Assembly: GCF_030816235.1 (NCBI RefSeq)
Contig: NZ_JAUSXT010000001.1
Span: 806,001 to 870,000, forward strand
Reading direction: 5' to 3'
Length of the DNA: 64,000 nucleotides
DNA from: Microbacterium sp. W4I4
GTDB lineage: Bacteria; Actinomycetota; Actinomycetes; Actinomycetales; Microbacteriaceae
The position numbers were made by a program, and so were the translations under genes. Below the pieces are notes generated by a model. It had not been told where the DNA came from, did no database searches, and saw only the letters and a list, made by a program, of their open reading frames with translations. Shown piece by piece: positions 13,325 through 37,283 of this stretch (positions within the stretch are counted from its first letter, which is position 1; every line of letters begins with the position of its first letter).

Positions 13325-14473
13325 ATGATGAGCAGTGCAGTGCAGCATCCGCCCACCGGTTCCACGGGCGCGATCCCCCGCCCGCGTCGACGGGTTCCGT
13401 TCTGGGACAACGCCCGCTTCGCCTGCATCGTGCTGGTGGTCCTCGGGCACGGCATCCAGCGTCTGATCTACGACTCCGACGTCTCCTACGCGTTCTACCT
13501 CTGGGTGTACGCGTTCCACATGCCCGCCTTCGCGCTGATCTCCGGCTACTTCTCCAAGGCGTCCAGCCCCACCAGACGGCAGATGGCGCGAGTCATCACC
13601 GACATCCTCGTGCCCTACCTGATCTTCGAGGGACTGTGGACGCTGACCAAGCTGCTCGTCGAAGGCCAGGCCGATCCGAACCTCACCCAGCCGTCGTGGA
13701 CGCTGTGGTTCCTGATCGCGCTCGGCATCTTCCGCCTCGTGCTGCCGTATCTGGCGCTGCTGCGCTGGCCGCTGGCGTGGGCGCTCGCCGTCTCGATCGG
13801 GGTCGGCTACCTCAGCAACGTCAACAGCACGTTCTCCCTCTCGCGCACCCTCGGACTGCTCTTCTTCTTCACGCTGGGCTGGTGGCTGCGCGAGCGCGAC
13901 CTGGTCCGCCGCTTCCAGTTGATCGACTTCCGCCCCTGGTGGCTGCGCGCCTCCGCGATCGTGGTGCTCGGCGTCTGGGCGTTCGTGTGCTGGCGCTGGC
14001 TGCCGATCTGGGATGCCGTGGACCTGCGCTACTGGTTCTTCTACGACGACTCCTACGCGGGCCTGTCCGCAGACCAGTGGTGGGCGGGCGGCGTCCGCCT
14101 GGGGCTGATGGCGCTGGCCCTGCTGCTGAGTGCGTCGTTCCTCGTGCTCATGCCGCGCCGGACGCACCGCTGGACGACGCTCGGGCAGTACACGATGTAC
14201 GTGTACCTGCTGCACTCCTTCGTGCTCTACCCGTTCCGCGAGTCCGGCGCGCTGCGCGGGCTCGACCCGACCTGGATCTGGCTGCCCCTGATCACGGTCC
14301 TCGCCGTGCTCATCGCCTTCGCACTCGCGTCGAAACCGGTGCGCCGCGTCTTCCGTCCCCTGATCGAGCCGCGCCCGCGCTGGATGTTCGGCGACCCGGC
14401 GCTGACATCCGATGCCGATCACCGCAACGATCCGACCGGATCCCGGCGCAGCAGAGAAGAGCCTTCGAAGTAA
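13325..14473 (+). CDS. Acyltransferase 3 family membrane protein
   Basis: A 382-residue integral membrane protein with about ten hydrophobic segments. The start FWDNARFACIVLVVLGHGI (26-44) holds the catalytic His of acyltransferase family 3, as in fucose 4-O-acetylase-like proteins. Further marks are FHMPAFALISGYFSK and VYLLHSFVLYP near the end. These enzymes move acetyl or other acyl groups onto envelope sugars. The C-terminal 30 residues are polar and probably cytoplasmic. The target glycan is unknown; the gene stands alone on the plus strand. Confidence 0.88.
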   Translation: MMSSAVQHPPTGSTGAIPRPRRRVPFWDNARFACIVLVVLGHGIQRLIYDSDVSYAFYLWVYAFHMPAFALISGYFSKASSPTRRQMARVITDILVPYLIFEGLWTLTKLLVEGQADPNLTQPSWTLWFLIALGIFRLVLPYLALLRWPLAWALAVSIGVGYLSNVNSTFSLSRTLGLLFFFTLGWWLRERDLVRRFQLIDFRPWWLRASAIVVLGVWAFVCWRWLPIWDAVDLRYWFFYDDSYAGLSADQWWAGGVRLGLMALALLLSASFLVLMPRRTHRWTTLGQYTMYVYLLHSFVLYPFRESGALRGLDPTWIWLPLITVLAVLIAFALASKPVRRVFRPLIEPRPRWMFGDPALTSDADHRNDPTGSRRSREEPSK

Positions 14474-32559: not shown

Positions 32560-34665
32560 GTGAGCGATTCCCGCATTCAGCCGCCCGTCGCGGCCCGCCG
32601 CCCCATCACCCGCACCCACCACGGCGACTCCTTCGAGGACTCGTACGAGTGGCTCAGAGCCAAGGACGACCCCGAGGTCATCGCGCACCTCGAGGCGGAG
32701 AACGCCTACACCGAGGCACGTACGGCCGACCTCGAGCCGCTGCGAGAGCGACTGTTCCAGGAGGTGAAGTCGCGGGTGCTGGAGACCGATCTGTCGGTTC
32801 CGACCCGACGCGGCGACTGGTGGTACTACGGACGCACCGAGGAGGGCGCCCAGTACGGCATCCAGTGCCGCACCGCCGCCACGGGCGAGGACTGGACTCC
32901 CCCGGTGCTCGAGCCCGGCGTGCCCGTCCCAGGCGAAGAGGTGCTTCTCGACGGCAACGTCGAGGCCGAGGGCCACGAGTTCTTCTCGCTCGGCGCGTTC
33001 GACATCTCCGACGACGGCACGCGGATGCTGTGGTCGGTCGACGTCGAGGGCTCGGAGGTGTACACGGTCCACGTGCGCGACCTCGTGACCGGCGCACGGC
33101 TGGAGGATGTGATCGAGAACACCGGTCAGGCGTTCTTCACACCCGACGCGGAGTCGGTCGTCTACACGACGCGTGACGAGGCCTGGCGCCCTGACACGCT
33201 GTGGACCCACCGCCTGGGCTCCGCCGTCGCGGACGACACCAGGCTCTTCCACGAGCCCGATGAGCGCTTCTGGCTCGGTGCCGGCATCACGCGCAGCAAG
33301 AAGTACCTGGTGATCGGGCTCGGCTCGAAGATCACCAGCGAGGAGCTGCTGCTCGACCTGTCCGATCCGGACGCCGAGCCGCGAGTGGTCTGGCCGCGCC
33401 GCGACGGCGTGGAGTACTCGGTCGATCACGCCGTCGTCGACGGCGAGGATCGGCTTCTCATCCTGCACAACGACGGCGCCCTCGACTTCGAGCTGGTCTC
33501 GGTCGCGGCATCCGACCCGGAGGGCGAGCGGCAGGTGCTGCTGCCGCACATGCCGGGCCGCCGCCTGCTGGACGTGGACTGCTTCCGCGACTTCGCGACG
33601 GTCGAGTTCCGCTCCGAGGGGATGCCGCACGCGGCGCTTCTGGACCACCGAACCGGCGCCCTGGACGTGGTCGAGTTCGACGAGCCGCTGTACGAGGCGT
33701 ACTTCAGCGGCAACCCGGAGTGGCACGCGCCGTTCCTGCGGATGGGCTACACGTCGTTCGTGACGCCGTCGACCGTGCTGGAACTGGAGCTGGCCACGGG
33801 CGAGAAGCACGTGCGCAAGCAGACGACCGTGCTGGGCGGGTACGAGCCGGCCGACTACGGACAGCAGCGCGTCTGGGCGACCGCTCCGGACGGCGTGCAG
33901 GTGCCCGTCTCGCTGGTCTGGAATCGTTCCTTCGGCGAGCCCGGCGCCTCCGCGCGCCCCGTGCATCTGTACGGATACGGCTCGTACGAGCACTCGATCG
34001 ACCCCGGCTTCTCCGCGATGCGCCTGTCGCTGATGGACCGCGGGGTGATCTTCGCGGTGGCGCACGTGCGCGGCGGCGGCGAGATGGGCCGGCACTGGTA
34101 CGAGGACGGCAAGGAGCTGCGCAAGCGCAACACCTTCACGGACTTCATCGCCAGTGCGCAGCACCTGATCGACACCGGTGTCACGACGCCCGAGCGCATG
34201 GTCGCGGAGGGTGGCAGCGCGGGCGGTCTGCTGATGGGCGCCGTCGCGAACCTGGCTCCTGAGCTGTTCGCCGGCATCCTGGCCGGTGTCCCCTTCGTCG
34301 ATGCGCTGACCTCGATCCTGGACCCGTCGCTGCCGCTGACCGTGGTGGAGTGGGACGAGTGGGGCGACCCGCTGCACGACCCCGAGGTGTACTCCTACAT
34401 GAAGACGTACACGCCGTACGAGAACATCCTCACGGACGTCGCCTACCCGCGCATCCTCGCGATGACCTCGCTGAACGACACCCGTGTGCTCTACGTGGAG
34501 CCCGCGAAGTGGGTGTCCGCGCTGCGGCACTCCGGCGCGCAGGACGTGCTGCTCAAGTGCGAGATGACCGCCGGGCACGGCGGGGTCAGCGGACGCTACA
34601 ACGCCTGGCGCGACCGCGCGTTCGAGTTGGCGTGGATGCTGGACGTGCTCGGCCTCGCCGACTGA
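32560..34665 (+). CDS. ptrB: Oligopeptidase B (S9A family serine peptidase)
   Basis: A 701-residue cytoplasmic peptidase that cuts small peptides after basic residues. The N-terminal ~400 residues are the beta-propeller gate (YEWLRAKDDPEV near the start). The C-terminal alpha/beta-hydrolase domain has VAHVRGGGEMGRHWYEDG, nucleophile motif EGGSAGGLLMG (Ser about 549), the catalytic Asp region NDTRV and His in TAGHGG. The acidic DPEVYSYMKTYTPYENI segment is typical of OPB specificity. GTG start at 32560. Confidence 0.93.
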   Translation: MSDSRIQPPVAARRPITRTHHGDSFEDSYEWLRAKDDPEVIAHLEAENAYTEARTADLEPLRERLFQEVKSRVLETDLSVPTRRGDWWYYGRTEEGAQYGIQCRTAATGEDWTPPVLEPGVPVPGEEVLLDGNVEAEGHEFFSLGAFDISDDGTRMLWSVDVEGSEVYTVHVRDLVTGARLEDVIENTGQAFFTPDAESVVYTTRDEAWRPDTLWTHRLGSAVADDTRLFHEPDERFWLGAGITRSKKYLVIGLGSKITSEELLLDLSDPDAEPRVVWPRRDGVEYSVDHAVVDGEDRLLILHNDGALDFELVSVAASDPEGERQVLLPHMPGRRLLDVDCFRDFATVEFRSEGMPHAALLDHRTGALDVVEFDEPLYEAYFSGNPEWHAPFLRMGYTSFVTPSTVLELELATGEKHVRKQTTVLGGYEPADYGQQRVWATAPDGVQVPVSLVWNRSFGEPGASARPVHLYGYGSYEHSIDPGFSAMRLSLMDRGVIFAVAHVRGGGEMGRHWYEDGKELRKRNTFTDFIASAQHLIDTGVTTPERMVAEGGSAGGLLMGAVANLAPELFAGILAGVPFVDALTSILDPSLPLTVVEWDEWGDPLHDPEVYSYMKTYTPYENILTDVAYPRILAMTSLNDTRVLYVEPAKWVSALRHSGAQDVLLKCEMTAGHGGVSGRYNAWRDRAFELAWMLDVLGLAD

Positions 34666-34742
34666 TCCCGGGCGCGGATCGGGTCGCTGTACTCAGCCCT
34701 GTGTCCGCACCCGATTTTCCGCCCTGTCTCCCCCACCCCCAT

Positions 34743-34855
34743 GTCCCAGCAGTGGCGGCTGTGCGCACCCCGCACCCGCCACTGCTGACCCGCTCAACGC
34801 GTCGTGTCCCAGAACCGGCGAGTGGGTGGTCCCTTCAGCCACCACGACTGGGACA
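34743..34855. repeat. Palindromic repeat cluster 5' of the nuclease-like gene
   Basis: First element: GTCCCAGCAGTGGCGG (34743) with stem CAGCAGTGGCGG (34747-34758) pairing CCGCCACTGCTG (34776-34787); it can also end the ptrB transcript. Second element: TGTCCCAG (34805-34812) pairs with CTGGGACA (34848-34855), with a further GTGGT/ACCAC pair inside. The same half-site recurs after the gene at 35938-36049. Confidence 0.75.
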
Positions 34856-34956
34856 TGGAATCCGGGGCCGTTCGCTCTGCACATTCCGGCTGTCCGGCGG
34901 ATTGTGCACAGTTCCCGGGACCGGGCATCCTCCGATCTGTCCTGACCGGGTGAGAT

Positions 34957-35931
34957 ATGGGGATGACTCGCAGGCAGCCGCTTCCCGACGACCTCGTCCA
35001 CGGACCCTTCCACGTCTCCCAGGCGCGCGAGGCCGGCGTCGCGCGTTCGCGGCTGCGGGCCGCGGACCTGGCCTCGCCCACCCGTGGTGTCCGGCGGGTT
35101 CGCGGCGAGCAGCCCGAGGAAGAGGATGCCAAGCTCACACCGACGCAGCGGATGCAGCGTGTCTCAGCGCTGCTGCGCGAGGAGGTCGACGCGTTCGCCG
35201 TGGCGTTCACCCCGCATCAGTTCCTGAGTCACGAGACGGGGCTCGCGATCCTGGGCACCCCGCTGCCGTACACGACCGCGAACCGGCGCAAGGTGCATGT
35301 CTCGGTTCGACGCCCGCATCCGCTGCCGCGTCGGTGCGGCGTTCACGGGCATCGCCTGCAGGAGCGGAAGGCGGCCCGATGGCGAGCAGGCGGTCTGCCG
35401 ATCGAGCATCCGGCGCGGATGTGGCGTCAGGCGGCCTCTCACTGGGACTTGGATCACCTGATCATCGCAGGCGACTTCCTCATCCACCCGCGCCGCCGCC
35501 TCGTCACTCTCGACGACCTGCGCGAGGAGGTGGTGGAGGCAGGTGACGTGCGCGGCCTGCTGCGCGCTGCCCTGCAGGAGATCCGCGCCGGATCCGAGAG
35601 CTCCGAGGAGAGTCGCCTGCGCCTGCTGCTGACTCGCGCCGGCCTGCCGGAACCGGTGCTGAACATGAACCTGTTCGACAGCAGCGACCGATTCGTCGCG
35701 CGCCTCGACCTCGCCTACCCGCAATACAGGGTGGCTCCGGAGTTCGACGGCCGCGGGCACGCGGACGTCGATCAGTTCGCCAAGGACGCCGACCGCTGGG
35801 ATGCGATCCGGGCACAGGACTGGCGACACGTGCGCATCCTCAGCCACCACATGCGACCGAATCCGCAGATCGCCGTCGACAAGGTTGCCGCCGCGTTGTT
35901 CGACGCCGGGTGGCGGCCCGGACGCGGATGA
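34957..35931 (+). CDS. Nuclease-like protein with AbiEi-type N-terminus and DUF559/Vsr-like C-terminus
   Basis: A 324-residue protein of unknown role. Residues 1-50 (FHVSQAREAGVARSRLRAAD) resemble the winged-helix start of AbiEi-type antitoxins. FLSHETGLAILGTPLP (about 88-103) is the central motif seen in that group. The C-terminal 70 residues (ARLDLAYPQYRVAPEFDGRGH, then DADRWDAIRAQDWRHVRI) look like a restriction-endonuclease-fold DUF559/Vsr domain with acidic residues Asp and Glu-x-Asp-Gly. There is no adjacent toxin gene. Palindromic repeats lie on both sides, the 3' one starting seven bases after the stop. Confidence 0.7.
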   Translation: MGMTRRQPLPDDLVHGPFHVSQAREAGVARSRLRAADLASPTRGVRRVRGEQPEEEDAKLTPTQRMQRVSALLREEVDAFAVAFTPHQFLSHETGLAILGTPLPYTTANRRKVHVSVRRPHPLPRRCGVHGHRLQERKAARWRAGGLPIEHPARMWRQAASHWDLDHLIIAGDFLIHPRRRLVTLDDLREEVVEAGDVRGLLRAALQEIRAGSESSEESRLRLLLTRAGLPEPVLNMNLFDSSDRFVARLDLAYPQYRVAPEFDGRGHADVDQFAKDADRWDAIRAQDWRHVRILSHHMRPNPQIAVDKVAAALFDAGWRPGRG

Positions 35932-35937
35932 TTCTCC

Positions 35938-36049
35938 GTCCCAGAAGTGGCGGGTGCTGTGGCATCCGACCTACCTCTTCTGGGACGCGCCCTCGGATGC
36001 GGAGCAGCAAGGGTCGGTGAGCGACCCTGCCACCCGCCATTTCTGGGAC
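35938..36049. repeat. Palindromic repeat cluster 3' of the nuclease-like gene
   Basis: GTCCCAGAAGTGGCGGGTG (35938-35956) pairs with CACCCGCCATTTCTGGGAC (36031-36049) over 19 bp with one G-U. Nested between them are a third half-site CTTCTGGGAC (35977-35986) and a small hairpin GGGTCG...CGACCC (36011-36027). The region is strongly structured and shares its core with the 5' cluster. Confidence 0.8.
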
Positions 36050-36086
36050 ACGGAGGCGGCTCAGAGCGGGTACAACGAGCGGACGC

Positions 36087-37115
36087 TCAGCCGAAGAGCG
36101 CGGATGCCTCGTCGTAGCGTTCGCGCGGCACGGTGTTCAGCTCGCCGAGAGCCTCCTCGAAAGGCACCAGGACGATGTCCGTGCCGCGCATGGCGACCAT
36201 CTGGCCCCATGCGCCGCTCATGAGGGCGTCCGCGGCGTTCAGCCCGAGGCGCGTCGCGAGCACGCGGTCGAAGCCGGAGGGCGAGCCGCCGCGCTGGATG
36301 TGTCCGAGAACCGTGGACCGCGTCTCGACACCGGTGATCCGCTCGATCTCCGGTGCGAGCATCTCGCTGATCCCGCCGAGGCGCGGACGATTGAAGGCGT
36401 CCAGGCCCTTGTCGCTGTACGCCTCGTCCATGTCGGTGAGCGTGAAGCCCTCCGAGACGACGACAAGAGGAGCACGACCGCGATCGCGGGCGCGTGAGAC
36501 GAGCGCGCAGATCTCGTCCATCGACATCGGCACCTCAGGGATGCAGATGACATGCGCCCCCGCGGCCATGCCTGCATGCAGGGCGATCCATCCGACGTGG
36601 CGCCCCATGACCTCGGCCACCATGCAGCGCTGGTGCGAGTCTCCGGTGGTGCGCAGCCGGTCCATGGCGTCCGTCGCGATGTTCACGGCCGTGTCGAATC
36701 CGAACGAGTAGTCGGTCGCGCGCAGATCGTTGTCGATGGTCTTCGGCACGCCGAGGACGTTGATGCCGTCCTTGGCGAGACGGTCGGCAGCCGCCAGCGT
36801 GCCTTCGCCGCCGATGGCCACGATTCCGTCGATACCGTGCGCGGCGAGCGTCTTGGCGATGTTCTCGGCGCCGCCGCGCGATCCCTCGTAGGGATTGGTG
36901 CGGCTGGTGCCGAGGATGGTGCCTCCGACCTTGGACAGCCCCTTCACCTCGTGACGGGTGAGCGGGAAGAAGTCGCCGTCCACGACGCCGCGCCAGCCGT
37001 CGCGGATGCCGACGAACTCGAGGTCGTACGTGGTGGTGCCCTTGAGCACGATGCCGCGGATGACTGCGTTGAGGCCGGGGCAGTCGCCGCCGCTGGTGAG
37101 AATGCCGATCTTCAT
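36087..37115 (-). CDS. pfkA: 6-phosphofructokinase
   Basis: Phosphorylates fructose-6-phosphate in glycolysis. At 342 residues it has the motifs SGGDCPGLNAVIRG (8-21), GGEGT (about 101-105), PKTIDNDL (catalytic Asp), MGRHVGWIAL and GHIQRGGSPSGFDR. The Gly in GGEGT (rather than GGDDT) points to ATP as donor; the Lys of PKTIDND is shared with actinobacterial group III enzymes. The ATG at 37115 is the conserved MKIGILTSGG start. Confidence 0.93.
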   Translation of the reverse strand: MKIGILTSGGDCPGLNAVIRGIVLKGTTTYDLEFVGIRDGWRGVVDGDFFPLTRHEVKGLSKVGGTILGTSRTNPYEGSRGGAENIAKTLAAHGIDGIVAIGGEGTLAAADRLAKDGINVLGVPKTIDNDLRATDYSFGFDTAVNIATDAMDRLRTTGDSHQRCMVAEVMGRHVGWIALHAGMAAGAHVICIPEVPMSMDEICALVSRARDRGRAPLVVVSEGFTLTDMDEAYSDKGLDAFNRPRLGGISEMLAPEIERITGVETRSTVLGHIQRGGSPSGFDRVLATRLGLNAADALMSGAWGQMVAMRGTDIVLVPFEEALGELNTVPRERYDEASALFG

Positions 37116-37283
37116 GCTGCTGCCTTCATGATTCGGGGAAAGGGGTAAGGGCGACGCTGCCTGCATCCGACCCTAGTGGTGAACCCAGGTCGATGCCATT
37201 CCGCATCGCATGAAAAACGAGAATCTTGCCGAGCCGTTATGGCCATACGTCGATACTTTGCCGAATCGCATCCGAATCAACGA

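What the first reader, a model, noticed from the sequence alone, without database searches (positions are those of the whole stretch)
34743..36049. Nuclease-like gene bracketed by six GTCCCAG half-sites, three in each orientation
The half-site GTCCCAG(A/C)A appears forward at 34743, 34806 and 35938 and reversed at 34848, 35977 and 36041. I noticed no other full copies in this window. They bracket one gene with an AbiEi-like helix-turn-helix start and a DUF559/Vsr-like nuclease end, and the 3' cluster begins seven bases after its stop. This layout is like REP palindromes with their RAYT enzyme but with a different protein type. It could be a palindrome processed or moved by the nuclease-like protein, or operators for autoregulation.
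Basis: partly seen in the sequence, partly recalled or inferred. Interest (0 to 1): 0.7.

Follow-up and report, generated by a model that had tools for sequence, protein, structure and literature searches.

The report
Nuclease gene with matching scattered palindromes
A nuclease gene in this Microbacterium chromosome is bracketed by palindromes that also lie scattered round the genome, and many of its relatives have palindromes of their own, which looks like an unrecorded counterpart of the known REP-repeat systems although what the protein does to the DNA is not yet shown.

Summary
The layout is real and general. A 324-aa gene (34957-35931) lies between two 112-bp doublets of 49-nt imperfect palindromes, inverted copies of each other in layout. 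The model joins an AbiEi-antitoxin fold (residues 5-210) to a Vsr/I-Bth0305I (EDxHD-type) nuclease domain with conserved active-site-like residues.

In 41 of 61 Microbacterium homologue loci both flanks share a palindrome arm, against 1 of 1,029 control window pairs; in other genera 15 of 22. Sequences differ between loci; arms track protein similarity, loops and spacers do not. Half-site spacings cluster at multiples of ~10.5 bp. The palindromes recur without the gene: five sites for this gene, 13 clusters for a paralogue with its own palindrome.

Best reading: a REPtron-like pairing in which an AbiEi-type domain binds palindromes as double-stranded DNA and brings a nuclease to them, helping them spread. 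Binding and spreading are inferred. No RAYT-type transposase was found in this genome. Autoregulation alone does not explain the 3' and dispersed copies. Ten searches of an open-licence library listed no earlier description.

The parts
34957..35931 (+). Gene for a 324-aa AbiEi-like / EDxHD-Vsr-like nuclease fusion protein
   Evidence: ORF; homologues in 139 of 149 same-genus genomes; AlphaFold2 model pLDDT 92.5
34969..35586 (+). AbiEi-antitoxin-like part, residues 5-210 (winged helix plus C-terminal antitoxin-type fold)
35593..35913 (+). Vsr/EDxHD homing-endonuclease-like catalytic domain, residues 213-319; conserved E218, D251, E262, H268, D277
34743..34854 (-). 5' palindrome doublet (49-nt palindromes 34743-34791 and 34806-34854); layout is that of the 3' doublet read backwards
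35938..36049 (+). 3' palindrome doublet (49-nt palindromes 35938-35986 and 36001-36049), six bases behind the stop codon
34743..34749 (+). half-site GTCCCAG
34806..34812 (+). half-site GTCCCAG, 63 bp from the previous
34848..34854 (-). half-site GTCCCAG (continues TC, not MA)
35938..35944 (+). half-site GTCCCAG
35980..35986 (-). half-site GTCCCAG
36043..36049 (-). half-site GTCCCAG, 63 bp from the previous
32560..34665 (+). left neighbour: prolyl oligopeptidase (context; convergent with PFK)
   Evidence: Pfam PF02897 and PF00326
36087..37166 (-). right neighbour: phosphofructokinase (context)
   Evidence: Pfam PF00365

Best explanation
The gene and the palindromes are partners. SHOWN by comparison: homologues usually carry on both sides a palindrome peculiar to their own lineage; among the more similar proteins the palindrome arms are kept while neighbouring DNA is not; copies without the gene lie elsewhere in the same genome, nearly all of those read between genes; and paralogues in this genome have different palindromes. 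INFERRED: the AbiEi-like part binds each palindrome as double-stranded DNA (two inverted sites, about 49-63 bp in all, further sites on the same face of the helix) and so places the Vsr/EDxHD nuclease at the palindrome. Cutting or nicking there starts repair or recombination that copies the palindrome, alone or with the gene between two inverted copies, into homologous or new intergenic places. The gene is mostly inherited vertically while the palindromes multiply, as is said of RAYT genes and REPs.
For: Shared arm on both flanks (score >= 12): 41 of 61 genus loci against 1 of 1,029 control pairs; other genera 15 of 22, second subfamily 8 of 21, against 0 of 230 controls. Flank-to-flank similarity beats every other window pair of its region (21 to 46 pairs) in 39 of 61 loci. 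TGTCCCA/TGGGACA: 123 in 48.8 kb near the genes, 51 in 1,033 kb elsewhere. Arms stay alike between proteins 52-75% identical while loops and upstream spacers are at background. Half-site spacings phased at 10.5 bp, one per locus, n=53 of 81 loci given, R 0.71. Dispersed copies: a paralogue's palindrome has 60 sites at one mismatch against 0 for the reversed pattern; five gene-less sites for this gene (no homologue there). 22 of 23 clusters read lie between predicted genes. 5 or more model hits in 16 of 37 genomes with a close homologue and 4 of 62 without. Active-site-like residues kept, all five in 58 of 61. AbiEi is reported to bind two 23-bp inverted repeats 3 bp apart, i.e. 49 bp (PMC7319586, passages); I-Bth0305I to dimerise on nearly 60 bp (PMC3943268, passages).
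Against: 20 of 61 genus loci, 7 of 22 other-genus loci, 13 of 21 of the second subfamily and one of three full-length own paralogues (L182) show no shared palindrome at that threshold. Below 45% protein identity arms are no more alike than loops. Palindromes occur without a close gene (for example G042), and 21 of 37 genomes with a close homologue have under 5 hits. No junction of an empty and a filled site could be aligned, so no insertion or duplication is seen. The gene's orientation at the PFK site changes only once on the tree and the two copies held by three genomes are old, 57-62% identical, so the gene itself is not hopping. Palindrome similarity correlates weakly with the winged-helix part (rho 0.14) and better with the rest (0.45-0.52). 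For the second paralogue's palindrome the count at up to 3 mismatches (142) does not exceed the control (151). In other genomes the first paralogue's pattern has 0-9 matches where the reversed control has 0-2, so the control understates the background.
Confidence: 0.55

Rival explanations
1. The palindromes are operators: the AbiEi-like part autoregulates the gene by binding inverted repeats, as AbiEi does, and the dispersed copies are a regulon or decoys.
For: AbiEi fold and the reported 23+3+23 bp operator geometry (PMC7319586, passages) match the 49-bp unit; the 5' array lies about 100-215 bp before the start codon; sites are helically phased.
Against: An equal array lies right behind the stop codon here and 3' of many homologues; gene-less copies of this gene's palindrome lie between convergent genes at 3 of 5 sites; a nuclease domain with conserved active-site-like residues is unexplained.
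Confidence: 0.2
2. Gene plus flanking inverted arrays form one mobile unit, a transposon or homing cassette in which the nuclease acts as transposase or homing enzyme on the ends.
For: Inverted ends; six groups of loci with shared flanks plus ten loci whose flanks match no other; POP and PFK matches only 29-128 bp apart in 13 of 30 PFK loci; one orientation switch at the same site; the fold of a homing endonuclease.
Against: 32 of 61 loci fall in one group, at PFK, orientation changes once, no recent duplicate copies in the three genomes tested, only 3 of 72,556 plasmid records hold a relative; no target duplication could be examined.
Confidence: 0.15
3. A host function: the protein is a chromosome-maintenance, repair or defence nuclease and the palindromes are its loading or recognition sites, kept by selection and not selfish.
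For: Class-wide spread (153 of 197 genomes), vertical inheritance at the PFK site, Vsr-like fold.
Against: Palindrome sequence turns over between orthologues; model hits vary from 0 to 33 (both strands counted) between species; no match of the query beside PFK in 23 of 30 PFK loci read.
Confidence: 0.08
4. The palindromes are ordinary bidirectional terminators between convergent genes.
For: Several lie between convergent genes and form stems.
Against: Terminators need no shared sequence on the two sides of one gene; control windows of the same regions almost never show it (1 of 1,029); half-site phasing at 10.5 bp is not expected of RNA hairpins.
Confidence: 0.02

Closest known systems
REPtron: REP palindromes with a RAYT / TnpA-REP (Y1 HUH) transposase
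   Same: Gene bracketed by palindromes in inverted orientation; gene-less, mostly intergenic copies of the same palindromes; lineage-specific palindromes; a stable low-copy gene beside multiplying repeats.
   Different: No Y1 transposase found in this genome; protein is an AbiEi-Vsr/EDxHD fusion; palindromes of about 49-63 bp, none of the 16 units ending in GTAG; helical phasing points to double-stranded DNA.
AbiEi antitoxins of type IV toxin-antitoxin systems (S. agalactiae AbiEi, Rv2827c)
   Same: Fold of residues 5-210 and the 49-bp pair-of-inverted-repeats geometry (PMC7319586, passages).
   Different: No toxin gene next to it; extra nuclease domain; repeats also behind the gene and dispersed.
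EDxHD homing endonuclease I-Bth0305I and Vsr repair endonuclease
   Different: Different DNA-binding part; free-standing bacterial gene flanked by palindromes; homing not shown.
Pfam PF18741 (REase_MTES_1575) and PF04480 (DUF559)
   Same: 24 of 33 relatives match PF18741 and 10 of 33 match DUF559 at E <= 0.001.
   Different: The query itself stays below both curated cut-offs (18.1 of 38.2 and 12.3 of 20.6 bits); the namesake is a multidomain protein with HEPN, transglutaminase, Vsr and wHTH parts (PMC3710099, passages).

Membership tests
REPtron (REP + RAYT) | Y1 (HUH) transposase PF01797 | tested here: not met
   No match in the whole own genome, while 5 of 14 control genomes ring; fold of the protein is AbiEi + Vsr/EDxHD
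REPtron (REP + RAYT) | gene flanked by palindromes in inverted orientation | tested here: met
REPtron (REP + RAYT) | same palindromes dispersed without the gene | tested here: met
REPtron (REP + RAYT) | GTAG tag at one end of a 20-40 bp palindrome (definition from PMC3733652, abstract and passages) | tested here: not met
   none of the 16 units begins or ends in GTAG and all are 49 nt; other loci were not scanned for a tag, and the family also has untested CGTC-tagged kinds
AbiE type IV antitoxin | AbiEi fold with N-terminal winged helix | tested here: met
AbiE type IV antitoxin | toxin gene (DUF1814 nucleotidyltransferase) in the same operon | tested here: not met
   neighbours here are prolyl oligopeptidase and PFK
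AbiE type IV antitoxin | binds inverted repeats in its own promoter | tested here: inconclusive
   matching geometry 5' of the gene; binding not testable here
EDxHD homing endonuclease | EDxHD catalytic fold | tested here: met
EDxHD homing endonuclease | conserved E, D, H, D residues | tested here: met
   E218, D251, E262, H268, D277 all kept in 58 of 61; the match of these to the motif letters is my reading, not a computed superposition
EDxHD homing endonuclease | homing into a cleaved allele | not testable with these tools
   needs a cleavage assay and crosses
Transposon with terminal inverted repeats | inverted repeats at both ends | tested here: met
   5' and 3' doublets have mirrored layouts
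Transposon with terminal inverted repeats | precise insertion with target duplication at empty sites | tested here: inconclusive
   short POP-PFK junctions exist but cannot be aligned to filled ones
Transposon with terminal inverted repeats | recent near-identical gene copies in one genome | tested here: not met
   three genomes with two copies of one subfamily: 57-62% identical; own paralogues score far below the query gene; other multi-copy genomes were not examined
Pfam MTES_1575 / DUF559 | score above curated cut-off | tested here: not met
   18.1 of 38.2 bits and 12.3 of 20.6 bits for the query

The most novel reading that the evidence does not exclude
A class-wide palindrome-spreading system of actinobacteria with no HUH transposase: an AbiEi-type DNA-binding part fused to a Vsr/EDxHD nuclease, each lineage with its own 49-63 bp palindrome as ends and as dispersed offspring, arisen independently of RAYT/REP.
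Probability: 0.45. Interest if true: 0.9.

Novelty: new variant of a known kind. Interest (0 to 1): 0.8.

Why it matters
Dispersed palindromes in these high-GC genomes would get a partner enzyme, and REP-like repeats would no longer be tied to one enzyme superfamily. The protein family has a match in 153 of 197 sampled genomes of the class, often several, and many copies have their own palindrome, which makes a natural set of protein-DNA pairs for reading out specificity and for testing how a domesticated nuclease and a selfish repeat coexist. The open question of how palindromes without genes spread becomes testable with an enzyme of a different chemistry.

Tried and rejected
Rejected: chance clustering; RAYT; a known RNA family (in 34400-36400 one Rfam match, E 0.77 and far below its cut-off); a plasmid-borne gene (3 of 72,556 records); a simply hopping gene.

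Led nowhere: NCBIfam (0 of 33 matched); aligning empty and filled POP-PFK or lldD-HAD junctions; the control column, useless because its control windows overlap (it reads 100 throughout), replaced; the covariation control (random non-homologous pieces), replaced by loops and the -85 to -20 spacer; the pattern for the second paralogue's palindrome at 3 mismatches, no excess over control.

Dropped or limited before counts: one search skipped L203, L211 and L224 for short flanks and left five same-genus loci out of the class-level set, which itself is the best match of each of the best-scoring genomes, not a random draw; the 20 extra loci had been chosen because stems were visible and are not used there as statistics, but they are among the 81 loci given to the spacing test, in which a few motifs picked are plainly low-complexity (for example L056, L057); searches used 44 loci with a shared arm of at least 10. 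The Rayleigh values treat loci as independent, which they are not. Of the 30 PFK loci (the best PFK matches, not a random draw) 7 have the gene, 13 a short POP-PFK junction and 10 something else or a longer junction that I did not resolve. In one search the gene finder is my own, trained on four window ORFs; two GATGGAAAACG clusters (in L252) fell outside its central filter and were not classed; an isolated site near 1579707 counts there as a cluster but not; three clusters (L247, L251, L254) overlap the predicted start end of a neighbour by some tens of bases; further 'clusters' of the looser GTCNCAG motif in L011, L012, L014 and L016, most of them inside ORFs, are single chance half-sites and were left out of the 5. 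One search lists 57 places at up to one mismatch where one search counts 60; I have not explained the difference. Literature: ten searches of an open-licence PMC library; subscription papers and bioRxiv not covered. The class name and the match of G000 to Microbacterium rest's named relatives and general knowledge.

Full report
WHAT IS THERE. The gene at 34957-35931 (+) lies between a prolyl oligopeptidase gene (32560-34665, +) and a phosphofructokinase gene (36087-37166, -) that point towards each other. On either side is a doublet of 49-nt imperfect palindromes, 63 bp apart: 34743-34854 and 35938-36049. In each doublet one of the four half-sites is altered, so that three clean GTCCCAG half-sites show per side; the 5' doublet has the layout of the 3' doublet read backwards. 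Five of the six half-sites fit GTCCCAG(A/C)A; the sixth (34848) does not, and one lone further 9-mer lies at 13400.

THE ASSOCIATION IS GENERAL. Homologues were found in 139 of 149 genomes of the genus, Microbacterium by the named records. I took 60 homologue regions, nearly all of 19 kb (one of 9.9 kb), 40 of the higher-scoring and 20 of the lower, plus this one. TGTCCCA/TGGGACA occurs 123 times within 400 bp of the gene ends (48.8 kb) and 51 times in the other 1,033 kb, often as F F R - gene - F R R; 21 of 61 loci have two or more. Many homologues without that word have another palindrome. Tests that know no sequence: the similarity between the 5' and 3' flank exceeds every other window pair of the same region (21 to 46 pairs) in 39 of 61 loci, 27 of 41 at 43% identity or more and 12 of 20 below; a palindrome arm is shared by both flanks (score >= 12) in 41 of 61 loci against 1 of 1,029 control pairs. 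In other genera and families of the class, not picked by palindrome, 15 of 22; in a second subfamily of the genus 8 of 21 (9 at score >= 10); full-length own paralogues 2 of 3; controls 0 of 230. The family has a match in 153 of 197 genomes of the class.

PALINDROME AND PROTEIN CHANGE TOGETHER. Among 44 loci, arms are alike (14-nt arm score >= 9) in 3-4% of locus pairs whose proteins are under 45% identical, 26% at 45-52%, 68% at 52-60%, 85% at 60-75% and 100% (14 pairs) above 75%. Hairpin loops are at 2-3%, 1%, 1%, 0% and 14%, and the spacer between palindrome and start codon at 5-10%, 8%, 6%, 4% and 36%. So between moderately similar proteins the arms are kept while the DNA beside them is lost, and between distant ones the arms differ too. 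The rank correlation with protein identity is 0.52 (Mantel p 0.001), but lower for the first 55 residues (0.14) than for residues 60-210 (0.52) and the nuclease (0.45), which does not fit a picture in which the winged helix alone reads the site.

DOUBLE-STRANDED RECOGNITION. Same-orientation half-sites lie at spacings such as 21, 31, 63, 73 and 84 bp. With one spacing per locus (53 of 81 loci given) phase coherence is highest at 10.5 bp (R = 0.71; 0.59 on unique values); loci are related, so the nominal p values are too small. AbiEi is reported to bind two 23-bp inverted repeats 3 bp apart, and Rv2827c pairs 13 bp apart (PMC7319586, abstract and passages): 49 and 59 bp, the size of the units here. 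I-Bth0305I is reported to dimerise on a target of nearly 60 bp (PMC3943268, passages). That the present protein binds so is inference.

DISPERSED COPIES. In the own genome the unit recurs at five sites, none of which holds a homologue. A model of the 49-nt unit finds hits in 46 of 99 genomes; 5 or more hits, both strands counted, occur in 16 of 37 genomes with a close homologue (best E 1e-45 or better) and 4 of 62 without (Fisher p 1.8e-5). G042 has 12 hits but no close gene. The paralogue at C1:3067849-3068769 is flanked by another palindrome, GATGGAAAACG, with 60 sites at up to one mismatch in this genome against none for the reversed pattern (at two mismatches 138 against 12). By the places listed they form 13 multi-site clusters away from that gene, often 31 or 62-63 bp apart within a cluster. 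Of 149 genomes only G000 (60), G115 (32) and G064 (18) have more than 9; the others have 0-9, which is more than the reversed control (0-2) and so partly chance words. All three rich genomes hold a member of that subfamily. A third palindrome, CAGGTCGCA, flanks the paralogue at C1:2858982 and has 17 listed sites at up to one mismatch, two of them beside that gene, but at the threshold used (3) there is no excess over control. By a simple codon-based gene finder, 12 of 12 clusters read of the second family, 6 of 6 of the third and 4 of 5 gene-less sites of the first lie between genes, a few overlapping a predicted start; the fifth of the first family lies in an ORF that joins ABC-ATPase and CbiQ-like parts, at their junction.

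MOBILITY. The 61 loci fall into six groups with shared flanks (32, 8, 5, 2, 2, 2) and ten single loci. Of 30 PFK loci read, 7 have the gene beside PFK, 13 have POP and PFK matches 29-128 bp apart, and 10 hold something else or a longer junction. At the PFK site the gene points either way (17 and 15), with one change on a quick tree. Three genomes with two copies of the second subfamily hold old, diverged copies with different palindromes. The gene therefore behaves as a long-lived resident while the palindromes vary in number. A palindrome doublet between lldD and a HAD gene is shared by G000 and G042 and was not found by the model at the other 28 HAD loci read, several of which have other neighbours. 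No junction was resolved.

COMPARISON. REPtrons (PMC3733652, abstract and passages; the other REP papers seen as search listings only) share the plan but have a Y1 transposase, not found in this genome, and 20-40 bp palindromes tagged GTAG or CGTC. AbiE systems share the fold and the repeat geometry but have a toxin gene alongside. EDxHD enzymes share the catalytic fold. None that I know of has this combination. Ten literature searches listed no paper that describes it; the library lacks most subscription papers.

VERDICT. The pairing of gene family and palindromes is close to certain; specific binding is likely; the nuclease acting at the palindromes to spread them is the best of several readings (0.55), with autoregulation alone the main rival (0.2).

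Noticed in passing
L016:3886-3998 (G000:C1:1997885-1997997): A gene-less palindrome doublet sits inside an 839-aa ORF, between its ABC-ATPase part and its CbiQ-like part, perhaps having fused two adjacent genes or lying at their junction.
   Followed up: partly
G000:C1:895958-896918 (L184, L185, L188): A homologue of the gene in several pieces and frames, which suggests turnover of the family in this genome; described only.
   Followed up: no
L116, L120, L130, L131 (POP-PFK junctions) and L153 (lldD-HAD site): A different palindrome (GATCAGG / GAACAGG ...) occupies some junctions that lack the gene; its partner gene, if any, was not sought.
   Followed up: no
window:28012-28061: Another imperfect palindrome between two convergent ORF ends, with only weak arm similarity to the GTCCCAG family.
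   Followed up: no
whole window: GGATGC/GCATCC is the most over-represented hexamer (99 and 94 against about 65 expected each); eleven CGGATGC copies stand in the flanks of L063.
   Followed up: partly
L198, L199, L200, L206, L207 (one other family of the class, code f23): Homologues in five genomes share a long, nearly perfect palindrome with GATCATGG near its start on both flanks, a good candidate for experiments.
   Followed up: partly
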